Source of the DNA: Certhia americana
Lineage: Eukaryota > Chordata > Aves > Passeriformes > Certhiidae
Direction: 5' to 3'
DNA length: 64,000 nucleotides
Assembly (NCBI GenBank): GCA_018697195.1
Contig: CM031858.1
Location: forward strand, 77,648,818-77,712,817
The translations under genes were made by a program, and so were the position numbers. The notes beneath the pieces are model-generated. The model ran no database searches and was not told where the DNA came from. It worked only from the letters and a program-made list of their open reading frames with translations. Shown here one piece after another: positions 22,572-44,249 of the stretch (position 1 is the stretch's first letter; each line of letters opens with the position of its first letter).

Positions 22572-22771
22572 ATTTTTGATTTTTCATCCCTAACCAGATA
22601 TAGTTATTTTGCTTACTCATCTATCATATCATATTTTTGATTTTTCATCCCTAATCAGATATAGTTATTTTGCTTACTCATCTATCATAGCAGCATTAAA
22701 TGTAAAACTCTTATAGTGTAAATGTAAAACTCTCATAGTGTACTTTAAATACTGTTACTTTAAATAGTGTT
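22572..22771. repeat. Three successive tandem duplications (61, 22 and 15 bp)
   Basis: A 61-bp unit starting ATTTTTGATTTTTC at 22572 is repeated from 22633 with few changes. It is followed by a 22-bp unit containing TGTAAAACTC (first copy from 22698, second from 22720, one substitution) and then a 15-bp unit ACTTTAAATACTGTT (first copy from 22742, second from 22757). The units are unrelated to one another, so three separate duplication events are stacked within 200 bp. Confidence 0.85.
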
Positions 22772-28647: not shown

Positions 28648-28652
28648 GTACC
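28648..28652. repeat. Target-site duplication, left copy (GTACC)
   Basis: It directly abuts the TG terminus of the left LTR and is identical to the five bases immediately following the right LTR. A 5-bp duplication is typical of class I and class III retroviral integrases. Confidence 0.92.
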
Positions 28653-29473
28653 TGTTTTGGTTTGAAAAAGACAGGGACTAAAGAAAAGGGAAACTTCTCT
28701 TGGGGTTTGTTATAATTCTAAAATTGAAAGAGAGGCCTTAGGCAACGATAAGGAGGGTAGGAATAACAGTTCTTTACTAGTTAGTCTAACAAGGTACATT
28801 AACAATAATTACAATATTGACAACAAACAGAACTAGAGGAGGGGAAAAGAAAAACAAAAAAAAAAAAACAACAAGTCAGTCACAGTTCTTCNNNNNNNNN
28901 NNNNNNNNNNNNNNNNNNNNNNNNNNNNNNNNNNNNNNNNNNNNNNNNNNNNNNNNNNNNNNNNNNNNNNNNNNNNNNNNNNNNNNNNNNNCCCCCCCCC
29001 CCACTCCCCTCAGTACCGTCACAAGCAAATAGGCTAGCGGCAGCTCTAGGAGGGTGAGATAATTCTGAGGGTTCACAGTGGCTGGAGCTGTTGGAAAAAA
29101 AAAAGTGTCCCGGCTGGCAGGGGCTGTAGAAACAGCGTGGGGAGACTTCGAGCAGAACTGAAGAAACCGTGGGTGCAGGGCAGGGAGGAAACGGGTTCCC
29201 AAAATCCCGGGGGACACACGAAGAGACCGGTGGTCCGACGGAGTCCGAGGTGAAGGGAAAAGTGAGAGCTCTCTCTCTCGCCGAGACGAGCAGCCCTGGC
29301 CGTCCCCCCAGAGCAGAAAAAAACTGCCCTGAGCGAAGTGGAATCAATGTCTCTGTGTAGCTGCTTCTTTTGTTTGTTCTTGAGCACTCATAAGTACCGA
29401 AAAGCACCTAGCCATTAGCTCTTTAGCAACTTCTGGGAAAAAATTCTATAAGAAATCAACCTAACCCCCAACA
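28653..29473 (-). repeat. 3' LTR of the provirus (contains assembly gap)
   Basis: It matches the 5' LTR almost base for base. By eye I count five substitutions (plus-strand positions 28656, 28719, 29005, 29012 and 29169) plus run-length differences, outside the gap. Two of these (28656 and 28719) are derived here relative to both the 5' LTR and the sister solo LTR, and both are G-to-A in viral sense. The true length is probably about 731 bp, like its partner, since the 100 N stand for roughly 10 bases and a C run. Open frames inside it exist in all minus frames but resemble no known protein. Confidence 0.93.
28892..28991. other. 100-N assembly gap
   Basis: Exactly 100 N interrupt the 3' LTR at the edge of a C homopolymer. 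The other LTR reads through the same point with CTCTGGTAAC followed by the C run, so the missing sequence is about 10 bases plus an uncertain number of C. The 100-N length is a placeholder. Confidence 0.95.
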
Positions 29474-29500
29474 TTATCCACTCCGAATTTTTTCCCACCT
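29474..29500 (-). other. Polypurine tract next to the 3' LTR
   Basis: On the minus strand a purine-rich stretch of the form AAGGTGGGAAAAAATTCGGA runs up to the LTR start. This is where plus-strand DNA synthesis is primed during reverse transcription. The eight bases closest to the LTR (GTGGATAA) are less purine-pure than usual, so the precise primer end is uncertain. Confidence 0.65.
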
Positions 29501-29610
29501 TAATATGTTACATCAAATTTAAACTTTAAAATTATGTACATACATGCAATACCTTAATTATATACATATATACATGCAGCTACAAATACAGGCACAGTGT
29601 CATGAGTAGC
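29501..29610 (-). other. Short noncoding spacer between pol and polypurine tract
   Basis: About 110 bp of AT-rich sequence with no open frame and no trace of env. Its brevity shows that the element ends directly after pol. Confidence 0.75.
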
Positions 29611-30483
29611 TCACCTTAAAACAAGATTCTCTTGAGGTATGCATCGAGTTTCTCTATCTCTCAGCATGACCTACCAGGTGCAGCCTGGTCTATGAGCAAA
29701 GACCACTCCACGGATGGGCTTGTCTTTGCTGGAGGCAGAATTAACCTAAACCGTTTTTCTTAGCATACTTCTCATGTGTACCACTGGAACTTTATCTCTA
29801 TCTGTTGTTTCTAAGGCTTTAGACTGGGCAGGGCCTGCTCGGTTAGTGGAACCTCGGGTGTTCACTAACCATGTAGCCTTTGCTAAATTAATCTCCCAGT
29901 TCTTGAAAGTCCTCCTACTAAGTGCCTTTAAGGTGGTTTTCAGCAGGCCATTGCACCGTTCAACTTTCCTAGCTGCTGGTGCATGGTAAGGAATATGGTA
30001 CACCCACTCAATACCATGTTCTTTAGCCCAGGTGTTAATAAGGCTGTTTTTGAAATGAGTCTTATTGTCTGACTCAATCTTCTCAGGGGTACCATGCCTC
30101 CACAGGACTTGCTTTTCCAGGCCTAGGATGGTGTTCCGGGCAGTAGCATGAGGCACAGGGTAGGTCTCTAACTATCCAGTGGTGGCCTCCACTATGGTCA
30201 GCACGTAGCGCTTGCCTTGGCGGGTTTGGGGCAGTGTGATGTAATCAATCTGCCAGGCTTCCCCATACTTGTACTTGGACCACCGCTCACTGTACTAGAG
30301 GGGCTTCAGCCTCTTGGCCTGTTTGATGGCAGGACACGTCTCACAGTCGTGGATAACCTGTGAAATACTGTCTATGGTTAGATCTACCCCTCGGTCTCGT
30401 GCCTACTTATAGGTGGCATCCTTACCCTGATGCCCTGAGGCATCATGGGCCCATCGAGCTAGGAACAACTTTCCTTTGTGTTC
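29611..30483 (-). pseudogene. pol: Integrase domain (pol), five premature TAG stops
   Basis: Integrase inserts viral cDNA into host chromosomes. The zinc-binding HHCC module is complete: His codons at 30445-30447 and 30430-30432, Cys codons at 30343-30345 and 30334-30336 in a C-x2-C arrangement. The catalytic triad is also present: Asp at 30244-30246 in WQIDYI, Asp at 30067-30069 in SDNKTH, and Glu at 29959-29961 in KVERCN, with exactly 35 residues between the second Asp and the Glu. SDN is normally followed by Gly in retroviral integrases; here it is Lys, a G-to-A type change. In-frame TAG codons begin at 30403, 30295, 30172, 29746 and 29671 (lower coordinate). The frame ends at a TGA at 29611. 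There is no frameshift. The stops make it non-functional as encoded. Confidence 0.92.
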
Positions 30484-31060
30484 CTAATTTAAGTCTATTT
30501 TTGCCACTTCTATCTTTGCAGCATGATCTACCTGCTCATTATGTCGGTGCTCTTCATTAGCCCGGCTCTTGGGGACATGGGCATCTACATGACGAACTCT
30601 TACAGGGAGCTTCTCTACTCGAGTGGCAATATCTTTCCACTCCTCAGCAGCCTAGATTGGTTTCCTTCTACGCTGCCAGCTGGCCTTTCTCTACTGTTTT
30701 AGCCACCCCCACAGAGCATTGGCTACCATCCATGAGTCAGTGTAGAGGTAGAGCTTGGGCCACCTCTCTCTCTCAGCAATGTCTAGAGCCAGTTGAACGG
30801 CTTTGAGCTCGGCAAATTGACTTGATCTCCTTTCTCTTTCAGTAGCCTCTGCTACCTGTCGTGTGGGGCTCCACACAGCTGCTTTCCACTTCTGGTTCAT
30901 CCTTACAATACGACAGGAACTATCAGTGAAAAGAGCGTAGCGTTTTTCTTCTGCTGGTAGCTGGTTGTACGGTGGAGCTTCTTCAGCACGTGGCACTTGT
31001 TCCTGCTCCTCTTCATTAGTGAGACCAAATTTTTCACCCTCAGGCCAGTTCGTAATTATT
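30484..31060 (-). pseudogene. pol: RNase H domain (pol), premature TAG stops
   Basis: RNase H degrades the RNA strand of the RNA-DNA hybrid during reverse transcription. All four acidic residues of the DEDD set are visible: Asp at 30922-30924 in FTDSS, Glu at 30808-30810 in FAELKAV, Asp at 30736-30738 in YTDSW, and Asp at 30526-30528 in NEQVDHAAK. The first motif is normally T-D-G-S; here Gly has become Ser, a G-to-A type change. In-frame TAGs begin at 30691, 30652 and 30484. The domain boundary with the RT connection region is approximate. Confidence 0.88.
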
Positions 31061-32430
31061 TCTAAAATCTTAGGGCGATTTGGGTTTCTAATACGGGCGC
31101 GCTGCGTGATGAGAGCGATTCATTTGCTCTATGTGGCATCAGTGGCGTGGTGGGTAGAGGGAACCTTTCCTTTGAACATCTACCCCAGCACTGGTAGTCG
31201 GGGTGCCAGGAGGAGTTGTGCTTCTGTCCTAATCACCTCTGAGGCAGCTTGGACTCCTTCATAGGCAGCCAAGATCTCTTTTTCTGTGGGAGTGTAGTTG
31301 GCTTTAGATCTTCTGTAGCTTTGGCTCCAGAATCCCAGCGGTCGTCCTTGAGTTTCTCCAGGTACTTTCTGCCAAAGGCTCCAGGACAGACCATGGCTCC
31401 TGGCTGCAGAGTAAAGCACATTTTTCACTTCTGGTCCTGTCCTGACTGGGCTAAGGGCTACTGCATGAGCGATCTCCTGCTTGATTTGGGAGAAGGCTTG
31501 TTGCTGTTTAGGGCTCCAGTGGAAATCATTCTTTTTACGGGTAACTAGGTAGAGAGGGCTTACGATCTGACTGTACTCTGGAATGTGCATTCTCTAAAAA
31601 CCTATGGCGCTTAGGAAAGCTTGTGTCTCCTTCTTGTTGGTTGGTGGAGACATTGCAGTGATCTTATTGATGACTTCAGTGGGAATTTGACGCCGTCTAT
31701 CTTGCCACTTCACCCCCAGGAACTGGATTTCTCGAGCGGGCCCTTTGACTTTGCTCTTCTTGATGGCAAAACTAGCTTCTAGCAGAATCCGGATGATCTT
31801 CTCACCTTTCTTAAATACCTCCATTGCCGTGTTCCCCCACACAATGATGTCATCAATGTATTGCAGGTGTTCTGGAGCTTCACTCTTTTCCAGTACAGCC
31901 TGGATCAGTCCATGGCAGATGGTGGGACTGTGTTTCCACCCCTGGGGCAGTCGGTTCTAGGTGTACTGCACTCTCTTCCATGTGAAGGCAAACTGAGGCC
32001 TGCATTCTGCTGCCAAAGGAATGGAGAAAAACGCATTGGCAATGTCAATAGTGGCATACTATTTCGCTGCCTTGGACTCCAGCTCATACTGGAGTTCCAG
32101 CATGTCTGGCACAGCAGCACTCAGTGGTGGAGTCACTTCATTCAAGCCACGATAGTCCACAGTCAATCTCTATTCTCCTTCAGATTTGCGCACAGGCCAA
32201 ATAGGGCTGTTGAAGGGTGAGTGTGCTTTGCTGACCACCCCTTGGCTCTCCAGCTCACGGATCATTTTGTGGATGGGGATCACGGCATCTCGATTCGTCC
32301 GGTACTGCCGGCGGTGCACTGTTGAGGTGGCAATTGGCACCTGTTGCTCTTCCACCTTCAGGAGTCCTACTGCAGATGGGTTCTCTGACAGACCAGGCAA
32401 GGTGTTCAACTGCTTAATGCTCTTTGTCTC
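31061..32430 (-). pseudogene. pol: Reverse transcriptase (pol), seven premature stops
   Basis: RT copies the viral RNA into DNA. The fingers start with the conserved SPFNSPIWPV block near 32190, the motif A region TIDIANAFFSI lies near 32030-32058, and the catalytic YIDD is intact at 31849-31860. The thumb and connection continue as IPEYSQIVSPLYLVTRK, WSPKQQQAF and NYTPTEKEILA. In-frame stops begin at 32170, 32059, 31957, 31594, 31180 and 31129 (all TAG) and 31120 (TGA). Three of the TAGs sit where other retroviral RTs have Trp: directly before RLTVDYRGLN (HIV-type RT has Trp there), directly before YATIDIAN (gammaretroviral RT has Trp there), and before RMHIPEYS. The frame is otherwise continuous. 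Confidence 0.92.
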
Positions 32431-32796
32431 TACAGCAGCTATTCTAAAAGCCCACCTGAGTCTTTTCGGGTCTTTGTAATAGCCATTCCGGAGGTAGTCC
32501 ATGCCCAGGATACTCGGGGCCTCTGGGCCAGTTACAATTGGGTGTTCTTGCCATTCTTTTCTGGTCAGGCTCACCTCAGCTTCTAACAAAGTAAATTCTT
32601 GTGATCTCTCTGTCACCCCGGCAATAGAAACAGGTTCTGTCTTTACATGACTCGATGGCATCAGTGTACATTGTGAACTAGTGTCAACTAACGCACTGTA
32701 TTCTTGTGGCTCTGATGTGCCAGGCCATCTGACCCACACTGTCTAAAAGACCTGGTTCTCCCGTGCCTCTTCCTGGCTAGAGGCAGGGCCCCTCTA
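32431..32796 (-). pseudogene. pro: Aspartic protease domain (pro)
   Basis: The retroviral protease cleaves Gag and Pol after budding. The active-site block reads ALVDTSSQCTL, with the Asp codon at 32683-32685; the family rule is D-T/S-G, so the third residue here is Ser in place of Gly, a G-to-A type change at an essential position. The C-terminal signature ILGMDYL lies at 32491-32511. Protease is in the same frame as gag and RT. In-frame TAGs begin at 32794 and 32743, just upstream. In gammaretroviruses a UAG at this border is read through, so one of them could in principle be ancestral, but the general TAG pattern makes hypermutation the simpler reading. Confidence 0.85.
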
Positions 32797-34563
32797 ACCC
32801 TGGTTATTATTCTCTTCTTGAGCATACATAGTAGAGGTTTTTTCAAGGGGGTCTGACAAATTTTCTCTTCTGTAATACCTGGCAGAGCGGTCCTGGGAGG
32901 TTGAGGCTACTTTTATTTTTGTGGAACCCTTTCGATTACTGTTTCCCTCTTTGAGTTGACGCACCCGTGCTGCCAGGACAGAAGTGGGTTTCTTATCCCA
33001 CTTTCCCATGTCTTCCCCATGGTCACGCAGAAAGAACCACAAGTCAGCTCGTGGGGTGTATCCTCTTTCTTTAGCTGGGGAATGTTGGACTTTGACTTTG
33101 GGGCTTGTGACTCGCACTGGTGCTGTGTTGATCTTCCTCACCTCCTTCCTTATCTCCTTCATCTCCTCTCTAAGTTCTTTAGCCACAGCAGAGACATGAG
33201 CATGCATTGGGCCATTGACCATACTTTCATAATTTCTAAGCTTGTTGGCCACAGAACCCACTGTCTCTCGGTTGTTATCTGCATTGATTGTTGCAATGAA
33301 GGTGGTGTATTGAGCTGGCCCTAGATTTGCCAGACTCCACAACATTTGCCCTGTGCACCTGACTTTGTCGGGGTCATTATCGTGCTGTCTACCCTTCCCA
33401 AAGAGTACTTCTAGCACCGCTACTTCTCTCAGCTGTTGGATCCCTTCCTCGAGGGTTTTCTAGCGCAGCTTATGATGGTGCTCCTGCATTCTCTCTCTGT
33501 GGACAAACCGTTCTCTTACACTCATCAAAAGACGCTCCCAGAGGGAAAGGGGCCCAGGCTCCCTTACAAATACCTGATCCACACCTGAGTCTTGGGTCAA
33601 AGGTCCCAAATTCCTGGCCTCAGTACCATCTAGCTGCACACCTGCACTCATAAGGTCTTAGACCCGGAGTAACTAGGTTGTATAAGCCTCACGTCCCCGT
33701 CGTACAATGTCCTTCCGCAGGTTACGGAGACTTTCATAGGGCAGAGACTCAGTGACAATCTCTACCTTTGGCTCCCCTGCATGTTGTGAGGTCCTTCCTT
33801 TCTTATTTGATTTCATCTTAGACTTTCTAGTTTCCACAGGGGCGACTGCTGCTGGCTGTGATTTCCCTTGTGGTTCAGCTGGAGCCTGGACAGATGTAAC
33901 ATCTGTGGGTTCCACTGCTGCACCACAAGAGTCTTCCTTTTTGAGGCAGCAGGAGGGCTTTTCACTAGTGGGGGAGGTGTGCTCTTTCAGCATCTGGCCT
34001 ATCTTTTTTAGCAGAACCCCCACCCAATCCGGCTGGTTTGTTTCTGAGGTGGTCTGTGGGGCAGGGTCAGGTTCTGTGGCACTGTTAGGCTGTCTGGCAG
34101 TATCCTTGTTCTCTGGGGCAGGTATCAGGGTGGTTATCCAAGTTAATTTTTCCTTATCTCTGAATGCTAAATAGAGCAGGCTTGTCAGCAGCACTAGCCA
34201 CTGCATGACATCATTAGCATACCGAGAAAATGTGAACCTTTCGAAAACTGGTGGGGTAGACCCAAAGAGCCAGGTGAAGGGTTGGGAGAAAATTTTCCCC
34301 GGTGGCATTTCTTCACAGTAGGTGCCATTATTAAAGTAACCCCAAAAACATTCAGTTAGTATGCGATAGCTCTGGATCAATGAGCTTGCTTTCCAGAGGA
34401 AATTAAAAATCTAGGAATTCCTCACATTATCAACCCACAAAATAAACTCGATAACAGCCACGGTAGCTTTAGTTATGGGACCCATGTCTAGATAACGGGC
34501 TACAAATGGAAGAAATATAGCTGTGGCCACGTGCCATCCAAACCTGGGTACACTAGACAACAT
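32797..34563 (-). pseudogene. gag: gag, four premature stops
   Basis: Gag forms the virus particle core. I start it at the ATG whose first base is 34563, about 100 bases inside the primer-binding site; the frame is open further upstream without another ATG. Features in order: a hydrophobic stretch (ATAIFLPFVARYL, near 34490), a second hydrophobic stretch VMQWLVLLTSLLYLAF at 34162-34209, a long Pro/Ser/Thr-rich linker, a capsid-like region around 33250-33450, a charged helix with heptad character (KELREEMKEIRKEVRKI, near 33130-33180) and a basic C-terminal tail. I see no C-x2-C-x4-H-x4-C zinc knuckle. In-frame stops begin at 34411, 33673 and 33460 (TAG) and 33658 (TAA). The gag assignment rests mainly on position, since its sequence is poorly conserved between families. 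Confidence 0.8.
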
Positions 34564-34659
34564 TGTTTTACTTGATGAAGTTCTTAAATTCAGCACACAA
34601 AAAATTAGATTACTCGAACTGTTATTCCTTTTTACCCTTTTTCCTTTCGATGTCTTCAG
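34564..34659 (-). other. gag leader of the provirus
   Basis: About 96 bases between the primer-binding site and the probable gag ATG. A splice donor and packaging signal would be expected around here in a replication-competent virus, but I cannot identify either by eye. With no env, a splice donor may not be needed. Confidence 0.5.
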
Positions 34660-34677
34660 GCCCCACGTTGGGCGCCA
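34660..34677 (-). other. Primer-binding site, tRNA-Lys(1,2)
   Basis: The minus strand reads TGGCGCCCAACGTGGGGC, which pairs at all 18 positions with the 3' end of vertebrate tRNA-Lys(1,2), CCA included. It lies 5 nt inside the 5' LTR, the expected place for initiation of minus-strand cDNA synthesis. The perfect match fits a young element, because this site is re-copied from the tRNA at each replication cycle. Confidence 0.95.
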
Positions 34678-34682
34678 AAATC

Positions 34683-35413
34683 TGTCTTGGTTTGAAAAAG
34701 ACAGGGACTAAAGAAAAGGGAAACTTCTCTTGGGGTTTGTTATAATTCCAAAATTGAAAGAGAGGCCTTAGGCAACGATAAGGAGGGTAGGAATAACAGT
34801 TCTTTACTAGTTAGTCTAACAAGGTACATTAACAATAATTACAATATTGACAACAAACAGAACTAGAGGAGGGGAAAAGAAAAACAAAAAAAAAAAAAAC
34901 AACAAGTCAGTCACAGTTCTTCCTCTGGTAACACCCCCCCCCACCCCCCTCGGTACCGTCACAAGCAAATAGGCTAGCGGCAGCTCTAGGAGGGTGAGAT
35001 AATTCTGAGGGTTCACAGTGGCTGGAGCTGTTGGAAAAAAAAAAGTGTCCCGGCTGGCAGGGGCTGTAGAAACAGCGTGGGGAGACTTCGAGCAGAACTG
35101 AAGAAACCATGGGTGCAGGGCAGGGAGGAAACGGGTTCCCAAAATCCCGGGGGACACACGAAGAGACCGGTGGTCCGACGGAGTCCGAGGTGAAGGGAAA
35201 AGTGAGAGCTCTCTCTCTCGCCGAGACGAGCAGCCCTGGCCGTCCCCCCAGAGCAGAAAAAAACTGCCCTGAGCGAAGTGGAATCAATGTCTCTGTGTAG
35301 CTGCTTCTTTTGTTTGTTCTTGAGCACTCATAAGTACCGAAAAGCACCTAGCCATTAGCTCTTTAGCAACTTCTGGGAAAAAATTCTATAAGAAATCAAC
35401 CTAACCCCCAACA
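34683..35413 (-). repeat. 5' LTR of the provirus
   Basis: On the minus strand it starts TGTTGGGGGTTAGG and ends CCAAGACA, with TG...CA termini. The length is 731 bp. A TTATAGAA TATA-like word lies only about 20 bp from the start, and an AGTAAA word near the far end could serve as a variant polyadenylation signal, but U3/R/U5 limits are not certain. The middle is GC-rich and followed by a C run and an A-rich tract. Minus-strand frames of up to 146 codons are open, shared with the other family copies, and are probably an effect of its pyrimidine-rich composition. Confidence 0.94.
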
Positions 35414-35418
35414 GTACC
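35414..35418. repeat. Target-site duplication, right copy (GTACC)
   Basis: It directly follows the terminal CA of the right LTR and is identical to the left copy. The perfect match shows that both LTRs still belong to the same insertion and that the flanks have not recombined. Confidence 0.92.
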
Positions 35419-35939
35419 CTTTCTTCAGTACAGAAAATGTCCTGCTTTCTTCCCAGGTGAAGGTTACCATTTAATTGTTTCTCAAAAAGCTGCTTAATTT
35501 GAAAAGAATCTATTAATTCATCACTAGTCATAATCATCCTGTAGGAGAGACAATAAGGAAAATTATTCAATTGACATAATAAGCAAAAAAATTGTTATCT
35601 TTAACTTCTAACCATTGCTACGTGAAGCAGAAAAGCATTACAGAACTGGAATATTGACACTGGGAGCATGTTGCTTTCAAACAGAGAGTTGGATACAGCT
35701 GCTGCTGAAATGGTCATCAAACATCCCAAGATGTTATTTTGACATTTCATTTCATTTCATGTTCCTTCTGTCCCTCATTTGTCTTCATTCTCCCTTCCTC
35801 AGAAAACACGTATTTCTGAAGAAAGGTTTTTGCTCTACTTTTACTTTACTGTTCCCTGAGTTTAGGTCGACAGAACTCTGTGCAGAGAGTTGCCAAACAG
35901 CCAGAAGTGCACCATGAATACCACCCTATTTTCAGAATT
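35419..35939. other. Unique DNA right of the provirus
   Basis: No gene or repeat end is recognised. Sequence continues the AT-rich background, then becomes GC-rich toward its right edge. Confidence 0.5.
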
Positions 35940-36310
35940 GCCCCAGCAAGGCTGCCAGCAGAAGCTTTAACAGCAGGCACGGCCCATCCCAGGAGCCGCA
36001 TGGAAATCCCCTCGGTGCCGGGCTGTGTCCCTGTGTCCGCAGGACCCTCCGTGCCGGCTCTGCGCTGCCCCCGGGCCTGCTCCCGCTGTCCCCTCGGGGC
36101 TCGCAGGGCTGTCTCTCGCTCGGTTCCCCTGGCTCAGCCCTGGCTGCCGGGCAGCGTTTTGCCCTCCCTTGCCCAGGCTTTCCCCGGGGCTCTCTCCCGC
36201 CCGCCCGTGGCTGAGGGGCTCAGCCGTGCCCTGCGCTGGGGCCGCTGCAGCCGCTGGCACCGCCTGGGGCCGGGACCGGCACACCCGGCACAGACCCGCC
36301 GGCTGTCAAA
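35940..36310. other. CpG-rich, GC-rich block (CpG-island-like)
   Basis: In contrast to the surrounding AT-rich DNA, this block is about 70% G+C, and I count roughly 30 CpG dinucleotides in about 330 bp, an observed/expected ratio near 0.7. Open frames exist on both strands because stops are rare in such sequence. I recognise no protein, no TATA box and no initiator. It could be a CpG-island promoter or first exon of an unannotated transcript, a GC-rich internal piece of the neighbouring ERV family, or a retained fragment of a GC-rich repeat. It abuts a minus-strand LTR on its right. Confidence 0.65.
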
Positions 36311-36350
36311 ACATGATCCTAATATAAGAGAAAATGCCGACTTCCAAAGA

Positions 36351-36976
36351 TCTTGGGTTTCTGTGCGCTTTTGTTCTTCCCGAGAATGCAAAATTCTTTT
36401 TGTCCAGCATCGCGGTCGGCGAAAAGACTGAGAGCCATCTCCTCTGATTTTTCAAGGTTGTTTATTTTCTCTTATCTATACAATTTCTTCTCAGCTCGAG
36501 GTCAGCTCGAGGGGAATAACACCACCCCCGAAGGTGACAAGCATCTTTATACTAACAGTTACGCATATCTTGTTAACAAAAGATTCCCAATACCTATCTC
36601 TTATGTTAGGAAGTCAGGCTCTACTTTGAACCAACCAAAGATGCCCATGCCACAGCAGAAAATGGAGAAGGTGAAGAAAAAAGAAGAAACCTCAAAGCCA
36701 TGTGGAGACTCCATTTTGTGTTTTTCTGCTTATCAACCTAGAAACTGTATAAATCTATTTTTCACCCTGTGACTGACTATTACCCTACTTAAACTCTTGT
36801 GGTTTGTAAATCCTCACACAAAGGTGGTAAAATCAAAGGCACAGGAGTTTTTGACTCCTGTCAAAAGTTTGTTTTCATAGGTTTTTCCTGTCAAAACCTT
36901 TTGCCAAGGCTTCCCAGCCCCCTGTCCGGGTCGGGAATCACCCAGGACAGTCAGAGGAGTGTTCTGGACTCCAACA
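36351..36976 (-). mobile_element. Solo LTR, minus sense
   Basis: On the minus strand it begins TGTTGGAGTCCAGAAC, a start I associate with avian ERV LTRs. It carries a TATAAAG box (plus-strand 36545-36551) and, about 80 bp downstream, an AATAAA signal (36461-36466). A direct repeat CAAAGA flanks it (36345-36350 and 36977-36982), matching as a 6-bp target duplication; with it the left end reads TCTTGGG in place of TG, so that terminus is mutated or the boundary is different (an alternative TG lies at 36372). Confidence 0.7.
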
Positions 36977-36982
36977 CAAAGA

Positions 36983-39137
36983 TTTTATGATTCCTTAAGT
37001 ACACTACTATTCTGCCTGCAGCTAACAATACCAGAGTGCCTGTGATTTTGATTGTGTTCTTTGCTTTTCATTACTTCGTCTCAAACAATTTTTACATGAT
37101 TCTAAAGTGAAGTTGTATGAACTTTTCCAAGATATATCAAGGATATTGAACTTAAGAATTAGGTAATATTCAGTTTAGATTGAGACTGTAAAGAAATACT
37201 TTTAAATAACAATCTATTACGTATGTGACAGTAAATATCTTCTAAGGCTCTTTCAAAAATAAAGGTCTGTTGGTCCTGAAGTGACAGCCAAGCCAACATC
37301 CTGTCCATCTTAATATATTAACAGCCTGCCATAAAGAAGTGAAAATTACTTCTAGAATCACATCCAGGTTTGTAGGTTTGCACCTTCACCAAAATTTCTT
37401 GAAACAAGAGAGTTTGCTTTACCAACAGGATATTCAAAGGAAGTATTCAGGAAGCATTCAGGAAGTATTCCCCTGGATACCAGATTCACTCTCACCTGCT
37501 TCCTAGCTCAGGGGAAGGACCACTAATGTGCTCTCTTCTTTCATGTCACATCTTTTCTACTACCATGAAGCAAGGAAGAGCTTGTCCACAGGAGTCTGTC
37601 TAAAGGACTGAAATGGCAAATGGAGAGAATGTTAGAACTTGACTTCAAACATTGTAGTTTAACACTTCCTGGTCTTTATTTTTAAAACAAACCACCATCA
37701 GCTGAATTCTGATGTTTAATATGATAATAATACAGATGAATAAGATATTTTTCCACATCAAAGCATTTCAAATTTCATATTTTAATCTACTTCACTCCTA
37801 CACAATAATTGTTATACATTTAATATACACTTAACACCTACCATTTTATCATTATAGACACCTACTCATCTAATCAAGGAGTTCAAAAAGTTCCCATTGC
37901 TTGGGGGAAAAAAAATGAAGCATATCACCATTATCTATATATATCTAAAGCTATAGAAACCACTCAAATATGCTCTGCTTACTACAGTAACCCAACAAAC
38001 TCCATAATCCAGTAGGAATTTAAAGTATTTAGGTTTAGAGCCTTTGCCTAATATTTATGGTCAAAGTGGTTTGAAATATAAATGACAAGATTTCACATTT
38101 TTGTCCTGATTTGAATTTTGAACAACTCTTATGAGAAGCTTTCATTATCACTGTAACAAAAGTATCACGATTGCAAAGGAAGCAAATGTTTCCCGTCATG
38201 CCATTAGAAGTTGACAGTACTCAAAGCTTTTAATGCAACTACTTCAGTTTGTGTAAGGGTAGAAGGCACACATAAAGCTTTAATGGCATAGCAAAGTGCG
38301 TTTCAGACACGGCTTAAAAAAAAGAAGAAAAAAAAATTTTAAAAAAGAGTCCAGCATCAGTTAAGATCAAGGTTGGTAAAAAAATTGCCTGCACACCTAA
38401 AAAAATTAAAATCTCAATTTTCCATAGGGTTTATTTCAAACTTTTATTTATTTCAGTTCCATGCTTGTTCCCTTGTCTTGTTCTTGTACTTTCAAAAACA
38501 GCACAAGATTAAGGAGAAACTACCATTCATCATCACTAATCCATTTAGCCTTCCTTCTTAGAGGCAATTTTCTCCCTCCTCCTCTTAAAAGCCCCGCAAA
38601 CCCAGATTTGGTAGAAAAGCACATTAAAATACAAACTGTCTATGGTGATTTATTGAGGTGAAAAAGGAGAAGGGAAAAATAATTTTAAAGCATCAGTTGA
38701 TTAAATAAATCTTAAATAAATATTTGAACCTAAATTTCAGATTTCCCAAAGGGAGAAAATAACACCAGAATCTGTATTTCCATACCAAAATAAATTACAT
38801 GCATAAAAATGCTAGGTTGAAAACTTTTGTCCAAAGCTACAATATTGTTTACAATATTTGAATTAAAATATCAAACATGAATCCTCCATGATTTAGGTTG
38901 AAATTATATTTTAGATTGCCAATGAAAATATAGGTTCAAAATTTGTTTAATAATGGATTTTGCTGGTAGCTTTCTCAGTTAGACTTCACATTTTCAGAAA
39001 ATGTGTTCTCCTGATAAGACATCTAATTGTATTTCGTCTTCTTAATTAGTTCTGAAACTGAAGTCCCTATAACAGGAATCAGACAAACAACATAATGTGC
39101 CTACTGTAGAAAGAAATGTAATCTCACCTTCTGATAC
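36983..39137. other. Unique AT-rich DNA, no gene supported
   Basis: Open frames are under 70 codons. A small tandem duplication of an AGGAAGTATTC-like word lies near 37440-37470. No other repeat or gene is recognised. Confidence 0.5.
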
Positions 39138-43532: not shown

Positions 43533-44249
43533 TGTCTTGGTTTTGGAAAGACAGGGACCAAAGAAAAAGGGGAACTTCCCTCGGGTTTTGTTATAATTCC
43601 AAAATTTAAAGAGAGGCCTTAGGCAACGATAAGGAGGGTAGGAATAACAGTTCTTTACTAGTTAGTCTAACAAGGTAAATTCACAATAATTACAATATTG
43701 ACAACAAACAGAACTAGAGGAGAAAAAAAAACCAAAACAACAAGTCAGTCACAGTTCTTCCTCTGGTAACCCTCCCCCCACTCCCCTCAGTACCGTCACA
43801 GGCAAATAGGCTAGCGGCAGCTCTAGGAGGGTGAGATAATTCCGAGGGTTCACAGTGGCTGGAGCTGTTGGAAAAGAGTGTCCCGGCTGGCAGGGGCTGT
43901 AGAAACAGCGTGGGGAGACCTCGAGCAGAACTGAAGAAACTGTGGGTGCAGGGCAGGGAGGAAACGGGTTCCCAAAATCCCGGGGGGGACACACGAAGAG
44001 ACCGGTGGTCCGACGGAGTCCGAGGTGAAGGGAAAAGTCAGAGCTCCCCGCCTCGCCGAGACGAGCAGCCCTGGCCGTCTTCCCCAGAGCAGAGAAAAAC
44101 TGCCCCCAGCGAAGTGGAATCAATGTCTCTGTGTAGCTGCTTCCTTTGTTTGTTCCTGAGCACCCATAAGTACCGAAAAGCACCCAGCTATTAGTTTCTT
44201 AGCAACTTCTGGGAAAAAATTCTATAAGAAATCAACCCAACCCCCAACA
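43533..44249 (-). mobile_element. Solo LTR of the same family as the provirus
   Basis: It aligns along its whole length (717 bp) to both provirus LTRs but with several percent divergence. It has TGTC...AACA termini, and exact 5-bp flanking repeats TGGCC at 43528-43532 and 44250-44254. It lies in the same orientation as the provirus about 8 kb away. It arose by recombination between the two LTRs of an earlier insertion. The plus-strand C residues at many sites where the provirus has T make it a useful reference for the unedited state. Confidence 0.95.

What the first reader, a model, noticed from the sequence alone, without database searches (positions are those of the whole stretch)
29611..34563. 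Endogenous retrovirus with a tryptophan-to-TAG stop signature: G-to-A hypermutation in GG context
Seen: one continuous gag-pro-pol frame of 1651 codons with no frameshift contains 21 premature stops, of which 19 are TAG, one TGA (31120-31122) and one TAA (33658-33660). TAG positions (lower coordinate): 34411, 33673, 33460, 32794, 32743, 32170, 32059, 31957, 31594, 31180, 31129, 30691, 30652, 30484, 30403, 30295, 30172, 29746 and 29671. Random decay should give frameshifts and mixed stops, especially TGA from methyl-CpG decay of CGA. Known: several of these positions carry Trp in other retroviral RTs. Inference: TGG became TAG by G-to-A editing of the first G of GG, as made by cytidine deaminases acting on minus-strand cDNA. 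Birds are not known to have APOBEC3; AID and, in some birds, APOBEC1 are the candidates. I recall reports of edited LTR elements in passerines, so the phenomenon may not be new, but this copy is an unusually clear one.
Basis: partly seen in the sequence, partly recalled or inferred. Interest (0 to 1): 0.88.

Follow-up and report, generated by a model that had tools for sequence, protein, structure and literature searches.

The report
Songbird retrovirus crippled by DNA editing
A retrovirus copy in a likely songbird genome carries 21 premature stop codons; related bird virus proteins have tryptophan at 19 of them, and its G-to-A changes at conserved sites all fall before G or A, so it was likely crippled by a host DNA-editing enzyme, a kind of damage already reported in songbirds.

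Summary
In detail: 34563-29611 (minus strand) is one frame of 1651 codons with 19 TAG, one TAA and one TGA before its final stop. The reading is supported, with one correction. Of 21 stops, 19 could be compared with relatives, and Trp is the majority residue at all 19. One has no data. The TAG at 32794 is a native gag stop: 22 relatives' proteins end at the codon before it. Against conserved columns (716 codons), G>A is 39 of 397 opportunities and C>T 3.3 of 294; by 3' neighbour GG 30/112, GA 9/129, GC 0/94, GT 0/62. C at +2 is avoided (GGC 0/18), as reported for APOBEC3G. A non-coding test agrees: against a solo LTR in the window, the 5' LTR has G>A at 12/57 GG and 3/111 other G. LTR divergence predicts under one decay stop; 20 are present. 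The empty GC/GT classes speak against AID. Edited zebra finch ERVs are in print, and other relatives look edited too, so the copy is not exceptional. Whether the TAGs are private to this copy is untested: the own-genome search did not complete.

The parts
28653..35413 (-). whole provirus: LTR, gag, pro-pol, LTR; no env
   Evidence: LTR borders and target duplication; domains in pieces; 137 bp between pol stop and 3' LTR
34683..35413 (-). 5' LTR, 731 bp
28653..29473 (-). 3' LTR, holding an assembly gap of 100 N (28892-28991)
35414..35418 (.). target site duplication GGTAC, 5' side
28648..28652 (.). target site duplication GGTAC, 3' side
34660..34677 (-). primer binding site, Lys type (assignment recalled)
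   Evidence: sequence after the 5' LTR
29611..34563 (-). broken gag-pro-pol frame with 21 internal stops, 20 of them read as editing damage
32794..32796 (-). native gag stop (TAG) in frame with pol
   Evidence: 22 relatives' proteins end at the codon before it; no Trp majority there
43533..44249 (-). solo LTR of the same family, target duplication GGCCA; used as the DNA relative for the LTR test

Best explanation
This is an endogenous retrovirus copy whose 20 non-native premature stops and excess of G-to-A changes before G or A most likely come from a host cytidine deaminase that acted on its minus-strand cDNA during reverse transcription, before it integrated. Inferred mechanism: the enzyme turned C into U on single-stranded minus-strand cDNA, mostly the 3' C of CC and less often C after T; plus-strand synthesis read U as T, so G became A in the coding strand and Trp codons became stops, mostly TAG; the damaged DNA then integrated normally and was inherited. 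Shown here: the stops, Trp in relatives at 19 of the 19 that could be compared, the spectrum, its context and strand bias, the same context bias in the LTRs, and an intact 5-bp target duplication. Inferred: the enzyme, the stage at which it acted, and that the host is a bird. The likeliest editor is a bird APOBEC1-like enzyme with an APOBEC3G-like motif; AID is unlikely.
For: Trp majority at 19 of 19 comparable stops. G>A 39/397 against C>T 3.3/294; GG 30/112, GA 9/129, GC 0/94, GT 0/62; GG and GA against GC and GT P 1e-9. The same with stops left out (27/385; GG 19/101, GA 8/128, 0/94, 0/62) and at two other cut-offs, and with near or distant relatives apart (137 and 185 of 322). C at +2 avoided: GGC 0/18 against 30/94, P 0.003; Trp codons followed by C 0/13 against 20/50, P 0.006 (counts, tests). 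Non-coding DNA test: solo LTR to 5' LTR, GG 12/57 against 3/111 for other G, P 2e-4. Under one stop expected from decay. Edited ERVs reported in zebra finch (passages).
Against: No same-genome DNA copies could be compared. Six of the 19 Trp sites rest on four or fewer relatives. In the LTR test the G>A excess over C>T is only 15 to 7. A>G is second in the frame (10.3/374). In the amino-acid control 46 of 240 relatives reach the same G>A-type rate, and 20 of the 27 non-stop G>A residues occur in at least one relative. No clear gradient along the frame: edited GG sites per kb 3/10, 6/36, 10/35, 10/29, 1/2. No enzyme was looked for or found.
Confidence: 0.93

Rival explanations
1. Ordinary decay after integration, including loss of methylated CpG, made the stops.
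For: A few non-G>A differences exist, and two of the five LTR differences are C/T at CpG-like sites.
Against: Expected 0.71-0.78 stops against 20. No stop has Gln or Arg as majority in relatives, although 77 CAA/CAG and 19 CGA codons are present. C>T before G 0/11; G after C changed in 1 of 13.
Confidence: 0.02
2. AID, and not an APOBEC, edited the cDNA.
For: Birds have AID, a DNA deaminase (recalled).
Against: AID prefers WRC (recalled), which would give plus-strand edits at GC and GT: 0 of 156 in the frame, 1 of 72 in the LTR comparison.
Confidence: 0.05
3. The editing happened in an ancestral copy, and this is a daughter that inherited the damage and was moved by helper proteins of an intact relative.
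For: Nearly the same G>A set in both LTRs (15 and 17 against the solo LTR) would also fit this. Annotated proteins cannot show shared stops, so it is not excluded.
Against: Non-stop G>A residues are rare in relatives (mean share 0.032), and no relative shares more than two of them. The relatives seen are from other species.
Confidence: 0.15
4. Reverse transcriptase itself made G>A errors under low dCTP, without a deaminase.
For: Such hypermutation has been proposed for HIV (recalled).
Against: The preference for GG over GA and the avoidance of GGC match the deaminase motif in PMC3909203 (passages).
Confidence: 0.03

Closest known systems
Ultra-edited zebra finch ERVs (TguERVl1_I-int and TguLTRK1_1; Knisbacher and Levanon 2016, as tabulated in PMC12548423)
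   Same: G>A-loaded LTR elements in a songbird; one of the two is an ERVL by its name
   Different: Their loads were counted on DNA (392 G>A in 5,486 bp). Here the frame could be scored only at conserved codons, so a full load is not known
APOBEC3G hypermutation of HIV (motifs in PMC3909203, passages)
   Same: GG preferred, C at +1 and +2 disfavoured, G>A on the plus strand
   Different: Birds are recalled to have no APOBEC3; the enzyme here is unknown
Class III (foamy virus and ERV-L-like) endogenous retroviruses
   Same: RT nearest, among solved structures, to Pr125Pol, recalled to be foamy virus Pol; no env; 5-bp target duplication
   Different: Primer site of Lys and not Leu type (recalled); the RNase H profile matches cellular RNase H1 best, and p80 RT/RNase H entries (recalled to be MLV) better than the entries recalled as foamy virus; gag ends in an in-frame stop, a gammaretrovirus trait (recalled)

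Membership tests
APOBEC-type hypermutated provirus | G>A in excess of C>T in viral sense | tested here: met
   39/397 against 3.3/294; weaker in the LTR, 15 to 7
APOBEC-type hypermutated provirus | Edited G followed by G or A | tested here: met
   39 of 39 in the frame; 14 of 15 in the LTR by the neighbour in the solo LTR
APOBEC-type hypermutated provirus | Stops at Trp codons | tested here: met
   19 of 19 comparable stops; 2 of 21 not comparable or native
APOBEC-type hypermutated provirus | Editing before integration | tested here: inconclusive
   Both LTRs carry nearly the same G>A set, which an earlier generation would also give
APOBEC-type hypermutated provirus | Edits private to the copy, source copies clean | tested here: inconclusive
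   Own-genome search unanswered (12 calls); protein relatives cannot show stops; non-stop residues rarely shared
APOBEC-type hypermutated provirus | An enzyme of the host makes these edits | not testable with these tools
   Needs the host genome and an assay
AID-edited element | WRC target, plus-strand GC or GT (recalled) | tested here: not met
   0 of 156; 1 of 72 in the LTR
ERV-L (class III) | RT nearest to foamy virus and ERV-L | tested here: met
   Profile E 3e-20 for Pr125Pol against 2.4e-11 for the best MLV-type RT; solved structures only, no named ERV-L was compared
ERV-L (class III) | No env | tested here: met
   137 bp between pol stop and 3' LTR
ERV-L (class III) | Leu-type primer site, the source of the name (recalled) | tested here: not met
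   Lys-type site after the 5' LTR (assignment recalled); hence 'class III-like' only
ERV-L (class III) | dUTPase after integrase (recalled) | not tested
   The last pieces of pol were not among the nine given to Pfam
Gammaretrovirus-type gag stop with read-through | Stop between gag and pol in one frame | tested here: met
Gammaretrovirus-type gag stop with read-through | Read-through takes place | not testable with these tools
   RNA after the stop folds better than 195 of 200 shuffles, only a hint

The most novel reading that the evidence does not exclude
Songbirds have a germline-active deaminase that independently arrived at the APOBEC3G target: the 3' C of CC, with G two bases upstream excluded (plus-strand GGC avoided). 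It is neither AID nor a TC-preferring APOBEC1 of mammalian type, and this provirus and its neighbouring solo LTR both record it.
Probability: 0.35. Interest if true: 0.62.

Novelty: new member of a known kind. Interest (0 to 1): 0.38.

Why it matters
It is a readable record of germline defence against a retrovirus in a lineage recalled to lack APOBEC3. The motif (GG, then GA, not GC or GT, not GGC) is a fingerprint against which the deaminases of birds can be tested, and it points away from AID. As one more edited bird ERV it is not new.

Tried and rejected
No DNA relatives were found: four scans of viral contigs and one of genome contigs gave none. In its place stand 322 proteins and one solo LTR. 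The three protein searches had 494, 92 and 338 hits, of which 120, 92 and 120 were listed. They centre on protease-RT, gag C-terminus and RNase H; integrase and the gag N-terminus are thinly covered.

Rows dropped: 33 of 422 tblastn matches were out of frame or range. Codons with fewer than 8 relatives or under 80% agreement were not scored, which leaves 716 of 1650; of the 74 that differ, 9 are not one base away from the conserved residue.

Considered and rejected: CpG decay; AID; a reassigned TAG codon, because one TAG is the native gag stop and 43 TGG remain. The amino-acid control with every relative as focal sequence was blunt: the provirus has G>A 19.7, A>G 11.3, C>T 3.3 of 61 differences, and a G>A minus A>G share of 0.14 against a median of 0.10 in 168 relatives, so it is no outlier there. 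No gradient along the frame could be shown. The hairpin after the gag stop was not pursued. Rfam gave nothing in the window.

Full report
Observation. It lies in a provirus with LTRs at 34683-35413 and 28653-29473, target duplication GGTAC, and a primer site of Lys type (assignment recalled) after the 5' LTR. The 3' LTR holds an assembly gap of 100 N. Of nine stop-free pieces given to Pfam, four match reverse transcriptase, RNase H or integrase families; the integrase match is just under its curated cut-off (29.7 against 32.6). One more has a weak protease match (15.1 against 28.2), and four, three of them gag, match nothing. Between the pol stop and the 3' LTR are 137 bp, so there is no env. 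RT is nearest, among solved structures, to Pr125Pol, recalled to be foamy virus Pol; RNase H is not. I call the element class III-like.

Relatives. Three protein searches gave 322 listed relatives. The listed ones that bear an organism's name are birds, the best of them passerines (Hirundo, Zosterops, Turdus); others are unnamed metagenome proteins. That the host is a bird, likely a passerine, is inferred from this.

The stops. Aligned to the frame, the relatives have Trp as majority residue at 19 of 21 stops; six of the 19 rest on four or fewer relatives. The stop at 34411 has no data. At 32794 there is no Trp majority (one each of A, Y, W, R and eight gaps), and 22 relatives' proteins end at the codon before it. 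That TAG is a native gag stop in frame with pol, so read-through, known for gammaretroviruses (recalled), is the natural inference; the RNA after it folds better than 195 of 200 shuffles (z -2.05). Hence 20 stops are damage, 18 of them TAG, if 34411 is counted with the rest. Annotated proteins cannot contain a stop, so Trp in relatives shows the older state but not that the stops are private.

Spectrum. At columns with at least 8 relatives and 80% agreement (716 codons, 74 differences, 9 not one base away), per opportunity for a visible change: G>A 39/397, A>G 10.3/374, C>T 3.3/294, every other class under 1%. By 3' base: GG 30/112, GA 9/129, GC 0/94, GT 0/62. GG and GA against GC and GT gives P 1e-9. 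The pattern stays without the stops (GG 19/101, GA 8/128, 0/94, 0/62) and at a stricter and a looser cut-off (the looser one gives one GT). It stays with near and distant relatives apart (137 and 185; the distant set gives 1/81 GC and 1/49 GT). C at +2 is avoided: GGC 0/18 against 30/94, P 0.003; Trp codons followed by C 0/13 against 20/50, P 0.006 (counts, tests). Some GA calls may be GG sites in which both bases changed.

A DNA test outside coding sequence. A solo LTR of the family lies at 43533-44249 with target duplication GGCCA. From it to the 5' LTR, G>A is 15, C>T 7, A>G 7; by the neighbour in the solo LTR, GG 12/57, GA 2/39, GC 1/31, GT 0/41, GG against the rest P 2e-4, GGC 0/6. By the neighbour in the provirus, 14 of 15 precede G. 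Read the other way, the solo LTR has 7 G>A, 5 of 46 at GG, so it may be edited too. The two proviral LTRs differ at 5 of 720 sites (a second alignment adds one beside the gap). Three are G/A; at two of them the solo LTR has G, making them changes of the 3' LTR, one before G and one before A. Nearly the same G>A set in both LTRs (15 and 17) fits editing of the cDNA, or of an ancestor.

Age. The LTR difference predicts 17.2 substitutions and 0.71-0.78 stops in the frame since insertion, against 20. Gene conversion between LTRs could hide age but would not make this spectrum.

Mechanism. A deaminase on single-stranded minus-strand cDNA, preferring the 3' C of CC, is the best-supported reading; plus-strand synthesis then fixes G>A. 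The empty GC/GT classes argue against AID (WRC recalled). PMC3909203 (passages) gives GG, TGG and TGGG as favoured and C at +1 and +2 as disfavoured for APOBEC3G. PMC3880073 (passages) names zebra finch and anole lizard APOBEC1 as the only non-mammalian homologues then identified and reports the lizard enzyme as a DNA mutator. A bird APOBEC1-like enzyme is therefore my candidate, by inference only.

Results against an exceptional status. With every relative as focal protein and stops ignored, 46 of 240 relatives with at least 100 scored columns have a G>A-type rate as high as this copy; P0121 and P0146 (Zosterops) lead. Of 27 non-stop G>A residues, 20 occur in at least one relative, with a mean share of 0.032; no relative has more than two. 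Edited copies seem common in this family.

In print. PMC6523648 and PMC6497032 (passages) cite Knisbacher and Levanon 2016 for strong APOBEC editing of LTR elements in zebra finch and oscines. PMC12548423 (passages with Table 3) lists zebra finch TguERVl1_I-int with 392 G>A in 5,486 bp. The 2016 paper itself was not held. In the searches I saw, in listings and in the passages opened, no paper that identifies the bird editor or reports a GGC gap in birds; most listed papers were not opened.

Verdict. A real and well-supported case of a known phenomenon; its value lies in the motif, which narrows the search for the enzyme.

Noticed in passing
window 43533-44249 (-): A solo LTR of the same family, about 91% identical to the 5' LTR, with target duplication GGCCA; it may carry GG-context G>A changes of its own.
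   Followed up: yes
window 32695-32796 (-): Native gag stop TAG in frame with pol in an env-less, class III-like element, followed by a predicted hairpin (z -2.05): a possible read-through signal.
   Followed up: partly
window 28892-28991: Assembly gap of 100 N inside the 3' LTR, at a G-run that the 5' LTR reads through.
   Followed up: no
window 22572-22689: Two near-identical tandem copies of a 61-bp unit (98% matches).
   Followed up: no
window 35001-37000: G+C of 0.48 against about 0.35 around, reaching beyond the 5' LTR.
   Followed up: no
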